This document shows positions 3,682 to 13,229 of a stretch of DNA of 64,000 bases, in pieces (position 1 is the stretch's first letter; each line of letters begins with the position of its first letter). The notes beneath the pieces are model-generated. The model saw only the letters and a list, made by a program, of their open reading frames with translations, was not told the DNA's origin and ran no database searches. Where the stretch lies: assembly GCA_963681505.1 (NCBI GenBank), contig OY811979.1:8664736-8728735 (forward strand), in the 5' to 3' direction. The position numbers were made by a program, and so were the translations under genes. The DNA is from Eunapius fragilis. Lineage: Eukaryota > Porifera > Demospongiae > Spongillida > Spongillidae.

Positions 3682-5306
3682 TGTTGGCTGGGGACACGTG
3701 TGCATATGTTGGCTGGGGACACGTGTGCATATGTTGGCTAGGGACACTTGTGCATATGTTGGCTGGGGACACGTGTGCATATGTTGGCTGGGGACACATG
3801 TGCATATGTTGGCTGGGGACACGTGTGCATATGTTGGCTAGGGACACGTGTGCATATGTTGGCTAGGGACATGTGTGCATATGTTGGCTAGGGACACGTG
3901 TGCATATGTTGGCTGGGGACACGTGTGCATATGTTGGCTAGGGACACGTGTGCATATGTTGGCTAGGGACACGTGTGCATATGTTGGCTAGGGACACGTG
4001 TGCATATGTTGGCTGGGGACACGTGTGCATATGTTGGCTGGGGACACGTGTGCATATGTTGGCTGGGGACACGTGTGCATATGTTGGCTAGGGACACGTG
4101 TGCATATGTTGGCTGGGGACACGTGTGCATATGTTGGCTGGGGACACGTGTGCATATGTTGGCTAGGGACACGTGTGCATATGTTGGCTAGGGACACGTG
4201 TGCATATGTTGGCTAGGGACACGTGTGCATATGTTGGCTGGGGACATGTGTGCATATGTTGGCTGGGGACACGTGTGCATATGTTGGCTGGGGACATGTG
4301 TGCATATGTTGGCTGGGGACATGTGTGCATATGTTGGCTGGGGACATGTGTGCATATGTTGGCTGGGGACACGTGTGCATATGTTGGCTAGGGACACGTG
4401 TGCATATGTTGGCTGGGGACACGTGTGCATATGTTGGCTGGGGACACGTGTGCATATGTTGGCTAGGGACACGTGTGCATATGTTGGCTAGGGACACGTG
4501 TGCATATGTTGGCTGGGGACACGTGTGCATATGTTGGCTAGGGACACGTGTGCATATGTTGGCTAGGGACACGTGTGCATATGTTGGCTGGGGACATGTG
4601 TGCATATGTTGGCTGGGGACACGTGTGCATATGTTGGCTAGGGACACGTGTGCATATGTTGGCTAGGGACACGTGTGCATATGTTGGCTGGGGACACGTG
4701 TGCATATGTTGGCTAGGGACACGTGTGCATATGTTGGCTGGGGACACGTGTGCATATGTTGGCTGGGGACACGTGTGCATATGTTAGCTGGGGACACGTG
4801 TGCATATGTTGGCTGGGGACACATGTGCATATGTTGGCTAGGGACACGTGTGCATATGTTGGCTGGGGACACGTGTGCATATGTTGGCTAGGGACACGTG
4901 TGCATATGTTGGCTGGGGACACGTGTGCATATGTTGGCTAGGGACACGTGTGCATATGTTGGCTAGGGACACGTGTGCATATGTTGGCTGGGGACACGTG
5001 TGCATATGTTGGCTAGGGACACGTGTGCATATGTTGGCTGGGGACACGTGTGCATATGTTGGCTAGGGACACGTGTGCATATGTTGGCTAGGGACACGTG
5101 TGCATATGTTGGCTGGGGACACGTGTGCATATGTTGGCTGGGGACACGTGTGCATATGTTGGCTGGGGACACGTGTGCATATGTTGGCTGGGGACACGTG
5201 TGCATATGTTAGCTGGGGACACGTGTGCATATGTTGGCTGGGGACATGTGTGCATATGTTGGCTGGGGACACGTGTGCATATGTTGGCTGGGGACACTTG
5301 TGCATA
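3682..5306. repeat. 25-bp minisatellite, left block (about 65 copies)
   Basis: Tandem 25-bp units with the core GGGGACACGTGTGCATATG, preceded by GTTGGCTG or GTTGGCTA. Variation is confined mostly to a G/A after GGCT and to CACGTG versus CATGTG or CACATG. The array starts about 8 bp after the dynein exon 5 donor. It is interrupted at 5306 by a transposon and resumes at 10,550 with the next base of the unit. Open reading frames run through it on both strands because 25-bp units shift frame without stops; they are not genes. Confidence 0.97.
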
Positions 5307-5361
5307 CAGTAGTGGTCAAAATAAACTTTACGTTTCTTAAAACGCCGTTGCCGTTGCACGG
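5307..5361 (+). repeat. Left terminal inverted repeat of the Tc1/mariner element
   Basis: 55 bp beginning CAGTAGTGGTC, matching the reverse complement of 10,493-10,547 with two mismatches. The next 50 bases (to about 5418) hold several AACGGCAACGG-like motifs that recur near the right end, the sort of subterminal array transposases bind. Confidence 0.92.
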
Positions 5362-5568
5362 CCGTTTTGACAAACGGCACGGCAATGCAACGGCAACGGA
5401 ACGTCAACGCCGTTTTAGGGTATCCAATTAACAAGTACAGTTCGCGCGAATTCCAACGTTTGCGAATACGTTTCTCCTCCGTTCACGAGCACGTTTTTCG
5501 CCGTTTAAAAAAACGCCACGAGCACGTTTTTCACAGTTTTAATTGCGCATCGAAGGTTTAGCATCACC

Positions 5569-6251
5569 ATGTCACTAAGGACGGCCATGAAGAATTTCCA
5601 GAAGGGTAAGTATATTCATGCCATGTACGTTTCCGTAAACTACAATGTTTCTTTTGCAGAAAATAAGTTTTTGATATTGTGGGAAGAGGAAGAGTCAGTG
5701 ACTGTTGTGGATGGCGATGATGTCCAGTGTAGTGTAAAAGCCATCGGTAATGAATGCAGCGTTTTGATGAATGGGGTGGTTTACAAAGGGAAGATTGCAG
5801 CTAAAGGTAACTGGTGTTATGTTAGACATGTAATTTGGTTTGTGTGGGTACAATATGAATAAGATGTTATGATAAAAGAAAAACATTTTGATTGCAGGAA
5901 CAACAGAAGAGATGAGGTCCTTAGAACAGGACTACATCAGTGGGGTGTTTACTCCTTTTGTGGAAGCTACATGTACAACAGAGAAAGTGGATGAAACTCA
6001 GAAAACAACTAGGAAAAGGGCTGCATCATCCACTGGTGCCTCGGGGAAGAAAACTCCTAAAGGGAAAAGGCCCCAAAAGAAGACAAAGAAGGAGCCTGGA
6101 AGAATTATAACCATCTCTTCTGAAAGTACATGGTGCATGTGTGTGTGTCGATATGGGTGTGACTACACAACTGTTATTGTACATAGATTCTACATGTAGA
6201 GAGGGCCCCAGCATAGAACAGGCTGCTGTCATCCCCCTGAACTCACTGAAT

Positions 6252-6314
<63 letters not shown>

Positions 6315-6591
6315 ATGTGTGTGTGTGTGTGGATATGGGTGTGACTACACAACTGATCTTGTACACAGATTCTACATGTAGAGAGGGCCCCAGCATAGAA
6401 CAGGCTGCTGTCATCCCCCTGAACTCACTGAATGGTGCGTGTGTGTGTGTGTGTGTGTGCATGTGTGTGTGTGCATGTGTGTGTGTGTGGATATGGGTGT
6501 GACTACACAACTGATCTTGTACACAGATTCTACATGTAGAGAGGGCCCCAGCATAGTACAGGCTGCTGTCATCCCCCTGAACTCACTGAAT

Positions 6592-6634
<43 letters not shown>

Positions 6635-6854
6635 ATGTGTGTGTGTGTGCATGTGTGTGTGTGTGCATGTGTGTGTGTGTGGATATGGGTGTGAACTACA
6701 CAACTGATCTTGTACACAGATTCTACATGTAGAGAGGGCCCCAGCATAGAACAGGCTGCTGTCACCCCCCTGAACTCACTGAATGGTATGTGTGTGTGTG
6801 TGCATGTGTGTGTGTGTGTGTGTGTGTGCGTGCGTGCGTGTGTGTATGTGTGTG

Positions 6855-6886
<32 letters not shown>

Positions 6887-8445
6887 TGTGTGTATGTGTG
6901 CACATGTATACGATCGTAATAATGCCTAACATTCACTGTACCTAGTGGATGGAAGCATAATCAATGCTGGTGGTGACCTGGGTGACCTGTCACCGAACAG
7001 CAGCAATAGTGATGATGATGCATCCATTCCAGGTAATTGCTTTGCATGACAAATACATGTAATTGGTACATGCATGTACATGTACTTGTACAGTATTGAT
7101 GCTAATATATACACTATTCTTAACAGGTCTGGATCCAGTGATAATGCTGTCAATCATCCAGGACCTAACTATACGGTTGGCATATGTGGAGCAGATGCTG
7201 GGTATCAGTGTTCCGTCACAGTCCTTGGCCAATGTACTGCCACAAGAGCCTAGTTGCTCATCTGATAAACCTTATGGCAAGCCACAGGTACAGAAAATTC
7301 TTCTATTACTGTACTTTGTGTTTATCATTGAATATGTTACTTTTCTAAGGGTACACCATCAGACAATGTACATTTACATGTACATGCGGCACAGTTTATG
7401 TCACCTTACCAGCATTATCCTACACCTGGCCAGTTTCAGGTACATCAGTGCAGCAGCTACTGTAGCTAGCCTTGTACTCATCTCGAACTACATGTTCCAT
7501 CTAATCACAGGGGAACACTATACCTGCATTGGCACCTACATGTAACAACCATCCACCAATGGCAATGCCAATAGTGCCCCAGGCCAACGAACTCACAATG
7601 CCACAAGCCTATTGTCCATCGGCTTCTAGCCAGCTTCAGGTATGTGCACACAGTTATCCTACACCTGGCCAGTTTCAGGTACATCAGTGCAGCAGCTACT
7701 GTAGCTAGCCTTGTACTCGTCTTGAACTACATGTTCCATCTAATCACAGGGGAACACTATACCTGCATTGGCACCTACATGTAACAACCATCCACCAATG
7801 GCAATGCCAATAGTGCCCCAGGCCAACGAACTCACAATGCCACAAGCCTATTGTCCATCGGCTTCTAGCCAGCTTCAGGTATGTGCACACAGTTTGTCTA
7901 GTTATAATCTCTAAACCTCATACTAATCTCAGGTTACACCAGGGGGCACTGTGCAATGTGTGACACCAGAATCGTACAACATGGCAATTCGTGCACAACA
8001 GCTACCCCTGCTTCCTAGGCAACTGCTAGGTTCATCAAGTACCAGTGAAACAATGTCACCCATGACTGCTCCAACACCAGTTCCTATTCCGGTGGTTCCA
8101 TTTGATAAACAGTTGCCATCGTCCGCAATAAGGAGGGAAGGATTGCTCAGTGTAGAAGTGGTGTTGGCACAAAACACGAAGCTAAAAGGACCAGGAAAGG
8201 CCGGAACACTAGCACTAAAGTTGGCCAAACAATGCTTGTTTGGGGAAGATGTGTTGAGGCGTTGTACGCCCTTGGGGACCCCCACACTGCCGGCCCTTCC
8301 CAGAGCTGAAATGATGCAGTTAAAAGCTATAATGTTGCAGCAATTTCCACAATACTGGAACTGTGTGGAAGAATTCGAACCTATATGGAAGCAGTGCCTT
8401 GAGGCTGTACAGCAGTGCTGCAAAAGGCTTCGTAATGCAAAGTAA
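5569..8445 (+). CDS. BEN-like-domain cargo gene inside the transposon (multi-exon)
   Basis: Proposed exons: 5569-5605, 5660-5806, 5898-6125, up to four copies of a 51-nt exon (6202-6252, 6384-6434, 6542-6592, 6735-6785), 6946-7032, 7127-7287, 7350-7439, a 129-nt exon in two copies (7511-7639, 7750-7878) and 7933-8445. Every junction is GT-AG and in phase; using all copies gives about 574 residues. The protein begins MSLRTAMKNFQK, has a small domain of about 60 residues (FLILWEEEE to GKIAAKG), a lysine-rich stretch like a nuclear localisation signal (KGKRPQKKTKKEP), a low-complexity middle and a C-terminal region of about 110 residues (LSVEVVLAQN to CCKRLRNAK). That region has the leucine/aromatic pattern of BEN domains, which bind DNA or chromatin partners. 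The BEN assignment is by eye. No role in transposition is shown. Rival view: a host gene captured by the element. Confidence 0.72.
6126..6900 (+). repeat. Tandem array containing four copies of a 51-nt exon with GT microsatellites
   Basis: Units of about 160-200 bp repeat from about 6140 to 6790. Each has a (GT)n tract, a GATATGGGTGTGA segment and a 51-nt block encoding GPSIEQAAVIPLNSLN. Each block is preceded by a TAG-AG acceptor and followed by a gt donor formed by the GT microsatellite itself. The block is symmetric (phase 1 to phase 1), so any number can be spliced in without shifting frame. Copy 3 changes E to V and copy 4 changes I to T. A longer GT/GC tract runs to 6900. Confidence 0.8.
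7414..7891 (+). repeat. 239-bp tandem duplication including a whole 129-nt exon
   Basis: Bases 7414-7652 repeat almost perfectly at 7653-7891. Each copy contains the end of the preceding exon, the intron and the 129-nt exon (GNTIPALAP to SASSQLQ). The 129-nt exon has phase 0 at both ends and can be used once or twice; the duplicated piece of the preceding exon would break the frame if spliced in. Confidence 0.9.
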
Positions 8446-8500
8446 AAATGTGTTGTGGTGTATTAAGTCAGTTAAATTTTATGTCTGTCAACTAGTATTG

Positions 8501-9063
8501 GGAGGGGTTACTCCCACTACACTGTAGATGAATGGGACCAGCATGGTTACTCCCACTATACTAACATGAAGGGGTTACTCCCACTAGACCAACATGAAGG
8601 GGTTACTCCCACTAGACTAACATGAAGGGGTTACTCCCACTAGACTAACATGAAGGGGTTACTCCCACTAGACTAACATGAAGGGGTTACTCCCACTAGA
8701 CTAACATGAAGGGGTTACTCCCACTAGACTAACATGAAGGGGTTACTCCCACTAGACTAACATGAAGGGGTTACTCCCACTAGACTAACATGAAGGGGTT
8801 ACTCCCACTAGACTAACATGAAGGGGTTACTCCCACTAGACTAACATGAAGGGGTTACTCCCACTAGACTAACATGAAGGGGTTACTCCCACTAGACTAA
8901 CATGAAGGGGTTACTCCCACTAGACTAACATGAAGGGGTTACTCCCACTAGACTAACATGAAGGGGTTGCTCCCACTAGACTAACATGAAGGGGTTACTC
9001 CCACTAGACTAACATGAAGGGGTTACTCCCACTAGACTAACATGAAGGGGTTACTCCCACTAG
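8501..9063. repeat. 28-bp minisatellite between the two transposon genes
   Basis: About 19 near-identical units containing GAAGGGGTTACTCCCACTAG and then ACTAACAT. It lies between the 3' ends of the cargo gene and the transposase. The inner GGGGTTACTCCC is close to a palindrome, but I see no clear terminator or polyadenylation role. Confidence 0.93.
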
Positions 9064-9173
9064 ATGAATGGGGACAGGGCAATGACTTTTTTTACGCATC
9101 CTTTATGCATGTGGTCAACATCAATACAATGCATCCATCTTATAATAGATGTACTACACATTAATAAATCCAT

Positions 9174-10248
9174 TCAATAACCAGTTGCTGCTCCATTCAG
9201 TTCGATAACCTTTGGTACTACTTTCCTCAGGTGCCTGATGTACTTCTTACACTTTTGGACATCAACAGTCTTCCAAAACTCCAGAATACCATCAACAAGT
9301 TCTTGTTTTGTTTTTGGTTTTACTTCTCTTCGACAGTATTCCTTCAACTCATGCCAAAGGTTCTCTATTGGGTTACAATCTGGTGATTCTGGAGGTGTCA
9401 TCCACCAATTAATGTTGTGGTCTTGTAGGAACTGGCGTGCAACTCTTGACGTGTGCTTGGGGTCATTGTCCTGCATGAACCGATGATGGTCTGGACAAGT
9501 GCTTTGCAGGAATGGTAACAGTGTTTCACGAAGAATCTCTGTGTATAGTGGAGCCTTCATTATCCCTTCAAAAATGCAGATTTTTGTTGCACCACGCATA
9601 CTAATGCCCGCCCAGACGTGAACTTTGACCGGATGTTTGGCCCTAAATTGGTAACGAGAGATGAATATTGACAAAGTAAAAATGAATTAAGTTACACGTA
9701 TACCTTGGTTTGTTTTTAGGTGGTTCCCCTCGCTTGTGGCAGCAAAACCGACGATGCGTTTCTAGCTGTATGCTACTCTCGTCGGACCAAATGACATCGT
9801 CGAAGCCATTCGTATCTAAAGCTTCGTTGATGTTTGCCGTCGCCCACTCACATCGCTTTACTTTATTGGCCTCGCGAATGATTTGGCAATATGCACTGCC
9901 GCGGAATGTCCAGCCAAGTGCTTGTCTGCAGCGAAGGACAGTTCGTATAGATAGGTAGTGTCCCTTCGAATGAAGGAGGCGATGTAACTGAAGCGCCGAT
10001 GTCTCGTCGTCTTCTCTCATCTGGTTTTCGACCAGAACTTTAATTGCTTCCGTTACTTTTGAACGTCGTCCGCTACCTTCTTTTCGACCAATGGAGCCAG
10101 TCAAGACATACCTCTTCAAAAGTTGGTGTATTCCCTGCCTTGAAGCTACCATTCCTTCGCTCAATAATCGTTTTGCTATCTCTGGAGCCTTTAAACCTTT
10201 ACGATGGAAAAATATTATCCGGAGCTTCTTGTAGGGGGAGTATACCAT
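9174..10248 (-). CDS. Tc1/mariner DD34E transposase (two exons)
   Basis: Exon 1 is 10,248-9,704 and exon 2 is 9,642-9,174. The 61-bp GT-AG intron restores the frame exactly (KPR then AKHPVKVHVW), giving about 337 residues, the usual size. The N-terminus begins MVYSPYKKLRIIFFHRKGL and continues into helix-turn-helix segments (LKAPEIAKRLLSEG; SRQGIHQLLKRY). The catalytic triad is visible: D in VIWSDES, D in FMQDNDPKHTS and E in CNPIENLWHELK, with 34 residues between the second and third. The enzyme would cut at TA sites and move this element. It looks intact. It faces the + strand cargo gene, with start codons near opposite ends. An intron in a Tc1 transposase is not usual but is seen in animals. 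Confidence 0.93.
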
Positions 10249-10492
10249 TTTCTTTTTAGCATGAGAAGTTGCAACTGGCTGCGCAGTATTTATAACAGTG
10301 TGTACAGACTAGAGCGTTGGTTTTTACGTTGTCACGAAATGTGTCAAAACGTTATAGGCAGTTCTTAAAAACGGAACTGGCAGTTCTTAAAAACGGCGTT
10401 CATTTCGCTGACACATAAATGTGATAATAAGTCTTCTATAGTTCTCTAAAACGGTACGGCAACGGTACGTTCCTAGAACTAACGTCTTCACA

Positions 10493-10547
10493 CCGTGCAA
10501 CGGGAACGGCGTTTTAAGAAACGTAAAGTTTTTTTTGACCACTACTG
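10493..10547 (-). repeat. Right terminal inverted repeat of the Tc1/mariner element
   Basis: 55-bp inverted partner of 5307-5361, ending CCACTACTG followed by the duplicated TA. Subterminal AAAACGGTACGGCAACGG motifs lie at about 10,448-10,470, and two AAAAACGG repeats lie just inside. Confidence 0.92.
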
Positions 10548-10549
10548 TA

Positions 10550-13229
10550 TGTTGGCTAGGGACACGTGTGCATATGTTGGCTGGGGACACGTGTGCATAT
10601 GTTAGCTGGGGACACGTGTGCATATGTTGGCTGGGGACACGTGTGCATATGTTGGCTGGGGACACGTGTGCATATGTTGGCTAGGGACACGTGTGCATAT
10701 GTTGGCTGGGGACACGTGTGCATATGTTGGCTGGGGACACGTGTGCATATGTTGGCTGGGGACACGTGTGCATATGTTGGCTGGGGACATGTGTGCATAT
10801 GTTGGCTGGGGACATGTGTGCATATGTTGGCTGGGGACACGTGTGCATATGTTGGCTGGGGACACGTGTGCATATGTTGGCTGGGGACACGTGTGCATAT
10901 GTTGGCTGGGGACACGTGTGCATATGTTGGCTGGGGACACGTGTGCATATGTTGGCTAGGGACACGTGTGCATATGTTGGCTGGGGACACGTGTGCATAT
11001 GTTGGCTGGGGACACGTGTGCATATGTTGGCTAGGGACACGTGTGCATATGTTGGCTGGGGACATGTGTGCATATGTTGGCTAGGGACACGTGTGCATAT
11101 GTTGGCTGGGGACACGTGTGCATATGTTGGCTGGGGACACGTGTGCATATGTTGGCTGGGGACACGTGTGCATATGTTGGCTAGGGACACGTGTGCATAT
11201 GTTGGCTGGGGACACGTGTGCATATGTTGGCTGGGGACACGTGTTCATATGTTGGCTGGGGACACGTGTGCATATGTTGGCTGGGGACACGTGTGCATAT
11301 GTTGGCTGGGGACACGTGTGCATATGTTGGCTGGGGACACGTGTTCATATGTTGGCTGGGGACACGTGTGCATATGTTGGCTGGGGACACGTGTGCATAT
11401 GTTAGCTGGGGACACGTGTGCATATGTTGGCTGGGGACACGTGTGCATATGTTAGCTGGGGACACGTGTGCATATGTTGGCTGGGGACACGTGTGCATAT
11501 GTTGGCTGGGGACACGTGTGCATATGTTGGCTGGGGACACGTGTGCATATGTTGGCTGGGGACACGTGTGCATATGTTGGCTAGGGACACGTGTGCATAT
11601 GTTGGCTGGGGACACGTGTGCATATGTTGGCTGGGGACACGTGTGCATATGTTAGCTGGGGACACGTGTGCATATGTTGGCTGGGGACACGTGTGCATAT
11701 GTTGGCTGGGGACACGTGTGCATATGTTGGCTAGGGACACGTGTGCATATGTTGGCTAGGGACACGTGTGCATATGTTGGCTGGGGACACGTGTGCATAT
11801 GTTGGCTGGGGACACGTGTGCATATGTTGGCTGGGGACACGTGTGCATATGTTGGCTGGGGACACGTGTGCATATGTTGGCTGGGGACACGTGTGCATAT
11901 GTTGGCTGGGGACACGTGTGCATATGTTGGCTGGGGACACGTGTGCATATGTTGGCTGGGGACACGTGTGCATATGTTGGCTAGGGACACGTGTGCATAT
12001 GTTGGCTGGGGACACGTGTGCATATGTTGGCTAGGGACACGTGTGCATATGTTGGCTGGGGACACATGTGCATATGTTGGCTGGGGACACGTGTGCATAT
12101 GTTGGCTAGGGACACGTGTGCATATGTTGGCTGGGGACACGTGTGCATATGTTGGCTGGGGACACGTGTGCATATGTTGGCTAGGGACACGTGTGCATAT
12201 GTTAGCTGGGGACACGTGTGCATATGTTGGCTGGGGACACGTGTGCATATGTTAGCTGGGGACACGTGTGCATATGTTGGCTGGGGACACGTGTGCATAA
12301 GTTGGCTGGGGACACGTGTGCATATGTTGGCTAGGGACACGTGTGCATATGTTGGCTAGGGACACGTGTGCATATGTTGGCTGGGGACACGTGTGCATAT
12401 GTTGGCTAGGGACACGTGTGCATATGTTGGCTAGGGACACGTGTGCATATGTTGGCTAGGGACACGTGTGCATATGTTGGCTGGGGACACGTGTGCATAT
12501 GTTGGCTGGGGACACGTGTGCATATGTTGGCTAGGGACACGTGTGCATATGTTGGCTGGGGACACGTGTGCATATGTTGGCTGGGGACACGTGTGCATAT
12601 GTTGGCTAGGGACACGTGTGCATATGTTGGCTAGGGACACGTGTGCATATGTTGGCTGGGGACACGTGTGCATATGTTGGCTAGGGACACGTGTGCATAT
12701 GTTGGCTGGGGACACGTGTGCATATGTTGGCTAGGGACACGTGTGCATATGTTGGCTGGGGACACGTGTGCATATGTTGGCTGGGGACACGTGTGCATAT
12801 GTTGGCTGGGGACATGTGTGCATATGTTGGCTGGGGACACGTGTGCATATGTTGGCTAGGGACACGTGTGCATATGTTGGCTGGGGACACGTGTGCATAT
12901 GTTGGCTAGGGACATGTGTGCATATGTTGGCTGGGGACACGTGTGCATATGTTGGCTAGGGACACGTGTGCATATGTTGGCTGGGGACACGTGTGCATAT
13001 GTTGGCTGGGGACACGTGTGCATATGTTGGCTGGGGACACGTGTGCATATGTTGGCTAGGGACACGTGTGCATATGTTGGCTAGGGACACGTGTGCATAT
13101 GTTGGCTGGGGACACGTGTGCATATGTTGGCTGGGGACACGTGTGCATATGTTGGCTGGGGACACGTGTGCATATGTTGGCTGGGGACACGTGTGCATAT
13201 GTTGGCTGGGGACACGTGTGCATATGTTA
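10550..13229. repeat. 25-bp minisatellite, right block (about 107 copies)
   Basis: Continuation of the array split by the transposon, with the same units and variants. A few units have GTTAGCTG or CACGTGTTCATATG, and patches of identical variant order suggest unequal crossing-over or local conversion. It ends where the sequence changes to GTTAGGTGCAAGTACTG. Confidence 0.97.

What the first reader, a model, noticed from the sequence alone, without database searches (positions are those of the whole stretch)
5307..10547. Tc1/mariner transposon carrying a multi-exon BEN-like cargo gene
The element has diagnostic ends, a TA duplication and an apparently intact spliced DD34E transposase. It also encloses a second, correctly spliced gene whose C-terminus looks like a BEN domain. 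Tc1/mariner elements normally carry only a transposase. Two convergent genes, each starting near one end, look like a stable two-gene transposon in which a chromatin-binding factor may aid targeting, regulation or silencing escape. The ends, transposase and spliced frame are seen in the sequence; the BEN call and role are inference.
Basis: partly seen in the sequence, partly recalled or inferred. Interest (0 to 1): 0.88.

Follow-up and report, generated by a model that had tools for sequence, protein, structure and literature searches.

The report
Two-gene sponge transposon with BEN protein
A freshwater-sponge jumping gene of the common Tc1/mariner kind, which normally carries only its cutting enzyme, here stably carries a second gene for a BEN-type DNA-binding protein, and many related elements in the same genome carry the same pair of genes.

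Summary
Window 5307-10547 is a complete 5,241-bp Tc1/mariner element: long inverted ends, TA on both sides, a DD34E transposase (337 aa, one intron) and a convergent multi-exon gene ending in a BEN domain. The BEN call rests on a bare-threshold Pfam hit and, more firmly, on a predicted fold whose 12 best PDB rows are all BEN domains.

It is not a one-off. The host assembly matches Eunapius fragilis. Four more two-ended copies carry both genes at unrelated TA sites. Genome-wide, 51 of 66 BEN-exon loci lie within 10 kb of, and convergent with, a related transposase (about 0.6 expected by chance). Nine element families have matching ends around both genes. BEN and transposase trees largely agree, and the one informative comparison shows strong purifying selection on BEN. 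This is an old two-gene transposon lineage, though some relatives hold a transposase without detectable BEN.

Both ends of all nine families are CpG-dense in a CpG-poor genome, and some carry repeated CpG motifs. Since BANP and BEND3 bind unmethylated CpG motifs, I propose that the cargo binds its own element's ends as an activator, anti-silencing or transposition factor. That role is inference. I found no report of BEN-carrying Tc1/mariner elements in the papers searched.

The parts
5305..5306 (.). left TA of the target-site duplication, inside a 25-bp satellite unit
5307..5361 (+). left terminal inverted repeat (BEN end)
   Evidence: 97% complementary; found at other loci
5307..5556 (.). CpG-dense end, CpG o/e 2.13 against 0.37 in the interior; the BEN-side 300 bp hold two AACGSCGTT motifs; upstream of the cargo gene
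5569..8445 (+). BEN cargo gene; predicted exons 5569-5605, 5660-5806, 5898-6125, 6187-6252, 6369-6434, 6527-6592, 6720-6785, 6946-7032, 7127-7287, 7511-7639, 7750-7878, 7933-8445
   Evidence: all GT-AG, frame kept throughout
6187..6785 (+). 66-bp exon present four times in tandem (phase-symmetric), in TG-repeat-rich introns
7511..7878 (+). 129-bp exon present twice in tandem
8209..8427 (+). BEN domain
   Evidence: PF10523, residues 94-166 of the exon translation from 7930; fold
8545..9064 (.). 28-bp minisatellite, 18.6 copies, between the two convergent genes
9174..9642 (-). transposase exon 2 (catalytic core)
9643..9703 (-). 61-nt transposase intron
9704..10248 (-). transposase exon 1 (N-terminal part and first D of the triad)
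10298..10547 (.). CpG-dense end, CpG o/e 1.74; upstream of the transposase gene
10493..10547 (-). right terminal inverted repeat
10548..10549 (.). right TA of the target-site duplication

Best explanation
Shown: this is one member of an old lineage of two-gene Tc1/mariner transposons in a freshwater sponge. A DD34E transposase gene starts at one end and a BEN-protein gene starts at the other, they converge, and the element inserts at TA. The BEN gene belongs to the element: it has co-diversified with the transposase across many families and is kept by purifying selection. Inferred: the BEN protein is a self-directed DNA-binding factor. It binds CpG-containing sequence in the element's two CpG-dense ends, which lie just upstream of both genes. 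It keeps these ends unmethylated and open, so the transposase stays expressed and the ends stay usable, as plant VANC or TnpA proteins do for their elements. Divergence of the BEN protein together with its end sequence would keep each family specific.
For: Five two-ended copies with both genes, all five flanked by TA at unrelated sites. 51 of 66 BEN loci are convergent with a related transposase within 10 kb, one more is near in another arrangement, chance about 0.6. Two further families: 5 of 5 and 7 of 9 two-ended elements hold both genes (counts are lower bounds because some searches scored only part of their candidates). Ends around both genes were read directly in nine families. BEN and transposase distances correlate, r 0.86 for 28 elements, p 1e-4, and r 0.52 for 11 representatives, p 3e-4; 5 of 8 splits are shared, 0 of 5,000 label shuffles reach that. 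Purifying selection on BEN: dS 1.26, dN 0.10, w 0.08. 18 of 18 ends have CpG o/e 1.37-2.60 against 0.34-0.67 inside and 0.46 in the window outside the element, where the 95th percentile of 250-bp windows is 1.19. AACGSCGTT: four copies in the window element's ends, five in L022's, none in either interior or in the window outside the element. BANP and BEND3 prefer unmethylated CpG motifs (PMC11472053, abstract); VANC precedent (PMC5735166, abstract).
Against: No expression, binding or methylation data. CpG-dense ends may simply be promoters, or transposase-binding sites. No BEN-free Tc1 element of this genome with clear ends was available as a control: L085 showed no convincing terminal repeats. 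AACGSCGTT was picked after looking and is absent from the other seven families, L080 included, although L080 is close to the window family; top 7-mer counts exceed the 95% shuffle level in only 3 of 9 families and not in the window family. 41 of 92 transposase loci have no detectable BEN partner, some of them open (C20:408385, C2:4406087, C9:2383188, C23:48449, C1:1141739), and two two-ended L023-family intervals hold a transposase hit but no BEN hit. Transposases from the protein database fall among the BEN-linked clades, and whether they have a BEN partner is unknown. For L079 the cargo is only distantly comparable to the others.
Confidence: 0.55

Rival explanations
1. The BEN protein is a structural subunit of the transposition reaction: it binds the subterminal sequence, brings the ends together or imports the transposase, and has no role in silencing, as recalled for the Myb-like second protein of Harbinger elements.
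For: Conserved second gene; repeated motifs at both ends in some families. The C18 element combines a diverged BEN half with an L023-type transposase half, so the two need not match exactly.
Against: Ordinary Tc1/mariner transposases act alone (recalled). CpG density extends over the whole 250-bp end, more like a promoter than a few binding sites.
Confidence: 0.25
2. The BEN protein is a self-repressor that limits copy number by binding the promoters in the ends, as some animal BEN proteins repress transcription.
For: Low copy numbers: at least 5, 5 and 7 two-ended gene-carrying copies in three families. A fly Ben protein is a repressor of neuronal genes (passage in PMC5704228).
Against: Selection for self-restraint is weak for a selfish element and should favour BEN-less escapees. 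In the window family no two-ended interval with a transposase hit but no BEN was seen, although two such intervals occur in the L023 family.
Confidence: 0.12
3. A host BEN gene was captured as passive cargo and hitch-hikes, or serves the host.
For: Host-like multi-exon structure. In 33 chosen pairs the BEN exon had no internal stop while 9 transposase exons did, though pairs were chosen for long hits in both.
Against: A related gene sits in families whose transposases are about 47-79% identical to one another and the trees largely agree. Passive cargo would decay or be lost between transpositions, not show w 0.08.
Confidence: 0.05
4. Assembly error or chance neighbours.
For: One copy carries a 2.5-kb run of N.
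Against: Repeated in dozens of places on many chromosomes with one orientation; precise TA junctions in unrelated flanks.
Confidence: 0.01

Closest known systems
Classical Tc1/mariner (DD34E) transposons
   Same: TA target, CAGT-type inverted ends, about 340-aa DD34E transposase
   Different: Classical elements are about 1.3-2.5 kb with one gene (recalled); here a second multi-exon gene, about 4.6-9.2 kb, CpG-dense ends, often an intergenic minisatellite
TBE / Tec elements of ciliates (PMC4724952, abstract; Tec recalled)
   Same: Tc1/mariner transposons with extra genes, under purifying selection
   Different: Ciliates, three genes and telomere-bearing ends; no BEN gene is mentioned in the abstract
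VANDAL elements with VANC (PMC5735166, abstract) and En/Spm with TnpA (recalled)
   Same: Second gene for a DNA-binding protein; noncoding target motifs that vary between relatives; proposed anti-silencing
   Different: Other superfamilies, plants, unrelated proteins; VANC action is shown, here it is inferred
KolobokP (PMC9587614, abstract) and Harbinger (recalled)
   Same: Animal cut-and-paste elements with a second protein
   Different: Second protein is a His-Me nuclease or a Myb-like factor; other superfamilies
Animal BEN proteins (BANP, BEND3, insensitive, NACC1, BEND6)
   Same: BEN fold; BANP and BEND3 read unmethylated CpG motifs (PMC11472053, abstract)
   Different: Host genes, not transposon-borne; 12-20% identical to the cargo BEN domain

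Membership tests
Tc1/mariner (IS630-Tc1) transposon | TA target-site duplication | tested here: met
   TA on both sides in 5 of 5 window-family copies and in L021, L022, L023, L079, L080, L082, C2_6887; L081 reads TG on one side
Tc1/mariner (IS630-Tc1) transposon | terminal inverted repeats | tested here: met
   59-nt arms, 97%
Tc1/mariner (IS630-Tc1) transposon | DDE_3 transposase with DD34E triad | tested here: met
   63.1 bits against 28.6; 34 residues between second D and E counted by eye on the protein
Tc1/mariner (IS630-Tc1) transposon | N-terminal helix-turn-helix | tested here: inconclusive
   HTH_Tnp_Tc3_2 and HTH_32 match below their cut-offs
BEN domain protein | BEN profile match | tested here: met
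   23.6 bits against 23.2 for the exon, but 22.3 for the whole spliced protein; L079 28.1. L021, L022 and L023 ORFs do not match the profile and are linked through the window BEN exon
BEN domain protein | BEN fold | tested here: met
BEN domain protein | sequence-specific DNA binding | not testable with these tools
   needs binding assays
Ciliate TBE/Tec element | telomeric-repeat ends (recalled) | tested here: not met
   ends are CAGTAGTGGTC...
VANDAL (Mutator-like) element with VANC | Mutator-type transposase and about 9-bp target duplication (recalled) | tested here: not met
   DDE_3 transposase and TA; the resemblance is in proposed function only

The most novel reading that the evidence does not exclude
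Animal Tc1/mariner transposons evolved their own anti-silencing system: a transposon-encoded BEN protein that reads unmethylated CpG motifs in the element's own ends and protects them from methylation, with protein and motifs diverging together family by family. Related transposon BEN genes may also be a source of host BEN regulators.
Probability: 0.35. Interest if true: 0.9.

Novelty: new variant of a known kind. Interest (0 to 1): 0.74.

Why it matters
Tc1/mariner elements are taken as the simplest one-gene transposons. A long-lived animal lineage that keeps a BEN-family DNA-binding gene shows that some of them need or profit from a second protein. If that protein shields CpG-dense ends from silencing, it would be an animal counterpart of plant anti-silencing systems and a direct test bed for how BEN proteins choose unmethylated CpG DNA. 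It would also bear on where animal BEN genes come from.

Tried and rejected
Passive one-off capture: rejected because many families share the gene pair and the trees largely agree. Chance neighbours: expectation about 0.6 BEN loci near a transposase against 52 seen. Other DDE_3 families as a control: of 82 DDE_3 hits I count by eye 22 outside the set, and by eye none lies within 10 kb of a BEN hit.

Literature on BEN plus transposons: (listings) showed no paper describing BEN in a Tc1/mariner element; one search listed 20 of 979 papers. The library holds open-licence PubMed Central papers only; Repbase and Dfam are not available here and Abhiman 2008 is not held. PMC5704228 (passages) concerns bracovirus Ben genes.

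Relatives in viral contigs: none. PDB sequence search with the BEN exon: none. The 363-aa DDE_3 family (L085) had no convincing terminal repeats, so it gave no CpG control. Motifs: none is shared by all nine families. Top 7-mer counts exceed the 95% shuffle level in L022 (7 against 6), L081 (9 against 5) and L082 (6 against 4, a CG run); in the window family 6 against 8, and the other five do not exceed it. The N-terminal exon had no Pfam match. The L079 BEN exon is barely alignable to the window exon by BLASTP (19 residues, E 0.003) and matches the cargo alignment by hhalign at 87% probability; so its cargo may be an old relative or a separate BEN capture.

Limits and rows dropped: searches scored 40 of 97 and 40 of 65 candidates, so copy counts are lower bounds. 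In one search, 5 of 33 elements were left out (near-duplicates or frameshifted). In one search the 5 weakest of 45 end hits of the window family were left out. One search printed only the least saturated of 378 comparisons; its BEN values ran from w 0.06 to 0.52. Coordinates were entered by hand. One search's stop comparison is biased because pairs were chosen for long hits. The C2_6887 interior is partial.

Full report
Observation. Window 5307-10547 is a complete transposon. The inverted ends are 97% complementary, and TA flanks both sides within a 25-bp satellite. On the minus strand a spliced 337-aa transposase matches DDE_3, with 34 residues between the second D and the E (counted by eye). 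On the plus strand a gene of up to 12 exons runs from 5569 to 8445. Every junction is GT-AG and the frame is kept throughout. A 66-bp exon occurs four times and a 129-bp exon twice, each phase-symmetric. The splice model is a prediction.

Host. The genome has 218,937,333 bases in 24 contigs. The contig lengths that I saw agree with the published Eunapius fragilis assembly odEunFrag1.1, 23 chromosomes plus mitochondrion, longest 24.99 Mb, chromosome 9 of 9.79 Mb; chromosome 5 differs in the last digit (PMC12616128, passages; lengths). The window therefore lies on chromosome 9 of a freshwater sponge.

Copies. Searching the host genome with the left end gave 45 matches, with 40 of 97 candidates scored. 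Nine intervals of the window family have two facing ends within 12 kb. Five hold both genes; the others are 799, 814 and 1,470 bp, and one of 3,962 bp without a pair. The five are flanked by TA and their flanks do not resemble one another. The window copy and the chromosome 3 copy differ by one substitution and eight gap positions over 5.2 kb, so transposition is recent. One copy holds a 2.5-kb N run, and one (L010) has a damaged BEN exon and transposase.

The pair is general. With the BEN exon as query, 72 matches merged into 66 loci; with the transposase exon, 124 matches merged into 92 loci. Of the 66 BEN loci, 51 face a transposase convergently within 10 kb, one is near in another arrangement, and 14 have none. 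Chance would give about 0.6. Against this, 41 of 92 transposase loci have no BEN partner detected; many are fragments, but a few are open. Elements of further families were read: L021, L022, L023, L079, L080, L081, L082 and the two ends of C2_6887. All have CAGT- or CAGC-type inverted ends and TA, except that one side of L081 reads TG, and both genes lie between the ends. With the window family this makes nine; L021 and C2_6887 are close in their transposase (pN 0.06). In two of these families 5 of 5 and 7 of 9 two-ended elements hold both genes; the two exceptions (3,921 and 10,780 bp) hold a transposase hit but no BEN hit. The L079 transposase matches the window one at 48% and has lost catalytic residues (read by eye), yet it has the same convergent layout; its BEN exon is a Pfam hit but only distantly comparable to the other cargo, so common descent of that cargo is not shown.

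Co-diversification. For 28 elements the BEN and transposase distances correlate (r 0.86, permutation p 1e-4); for 11 representatives more than 15% apart in the transposase, r is 0.52 and p 3e-4. The two trees of the 11 share 5 of 8 splits, against a mean of 0.32 under label shuffling and 0 of 5,000 shuffles reaching 5. The other splits differ, among them the placing of the window, L022 and L080 families. BEN diverges faster than the transposase: 31-64% identity between representatives, against 47-79%.

Selection. Between the L023 and C18 elements the BEN region has dS 1.26 and dN 0.10 over 135 codons (w 0.08, Fisher p 9e-23), and an N-terminal exon has w 0.25. The transposase exon of C2_6887 against L021 gives w 0.06. 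Most other comparisons are too close or near saturation; BEN values printed run from 0.06 to 0.52, all below 1. The C18 element is a natural mosaic: its BEN half is about 81-83% identical to L023 where alignable, its transposase half 97.6%, with the switch in the minisatellite between the genes. Six of eight families tested carry such an intergenic minisatellite, each with its own unit.

The ends. In all nine families both 250-bp ends are CpG-dense (observed/expected 1.37-2.60), while interiors are 0.34-0.67 and the window outside the element is 0.46. Age cannot explain a contrast within one element. AACGSCGTT occurs four times in the window element's ends and five times in those of L022, in no other family's ends, and in neither interior nor the window outside the element; L081 has AACGATG nine times. 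By shuffling, top 7-mer counts stand out in only three of nine families, so the motif evidence is weaker than the CpG evidence. These ends are also where both genes start. BANP and BEND3 prefer unmethylated CpG motifs (PMC11472053, abstract), and plant VANC causes methylation loss on TEs and has targets that often form tandem repeats (PMC5735166, abstract). The proposed self-directed activating or anti-silencing role rests on these parallels and is not shown. A BEN-free Tc1 control for the CpG pattern is missing.

Relatives elsewhere. The BEN searches returned few proteins (5, 3). One is labelled Em0007g1539a; its C-terminus is 71% identical to the window BEN exon over the aligned columns. That the label means the freshwater sponge Ephydatia muelleri is my reading of the name. 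Transposase relatives number 1,793, of which 120 were listed, with no organism names. In a tree of 119 of those 120 they fall among the BEN-linked clades, so the BEN-linked set is not shown to be monophyletic and gain or loss of BEN outside this genome is open.

Novelty. Multi-gene Tc1/mariner elements are known in ciliates (TBE, PMC4724952, abstract), and second genes are known in other superfamilies (PMC9587614, abstract; Harbinger and En/Spm recalled). A BEN-carrying animal Tc1/mariner lineage was not found in print, which cover open-licence papers only. I rate it a new variant of a known kind.

Noticed in passing
window 4842-5304 and 10550-11455, at least: A 25-bp satellite array (GTGCATATGTTGGCTGGGGACACGT, read by eye) surrounds the element; the insertion splits a unit at its TA, and the two flanks join to a plain unit.
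   Followed up: partly
L086 (C18:3301199-3308475): Natural mosaic element: diverged BEN half joined to an L023-type transposase half at the intergenic minisatellite, suggesting module exchange by recombination.
   Followed up: partly
window 8545-9064; L021 4408-5476; L022 2272-4828; L023 4030-5050; L081 4899-5526; L082 2421-2828: A minisatellite with a different unit in each family lies between the convergent genes in 6 of 8 families tested; purpose unknown.
   Followed up: partly
33 BEN-transposase pairs: The BEN exon had no internal stop in 33 of 33, the transposase exon had stops in 9 of 33; pairs were chosen for long hits, so this may be bias.
   Followed up: no
G000 C1:6640513-6641311, C1:6806286-6807755, C9:5559959-5560772: Short (799-1,470 bp) elements with window-type ends and no gene pair, likely non-autonomous derivatives; many more single end hits at about 84%.
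   Followed up: no
G000 C4:5432506-5436426 and C9:2373826-2384605: Two-ended L023-family intervals with a transposase hit but no BEN hit; whether BEN was lost or decayed was not examined.
   Followed up: no
window 6187-6785 and 7511-7878: Tandem duplication of whole phase-symmetric cargo exons, in a stretch where copies of the element differ in length.
   Followed up: partly
G000 C11:7578973-7579167: A BEN profile hit with no DDE_3 match nearby, possibly a host BEN gene and a candidate relative of the cargo.
   Followed up: no
window 5345-5399: Subterminal inverted repeat just inside the left end; the 114-nt end folds strongly as single-stranded DNA (z -5.6).
   Followed up: no
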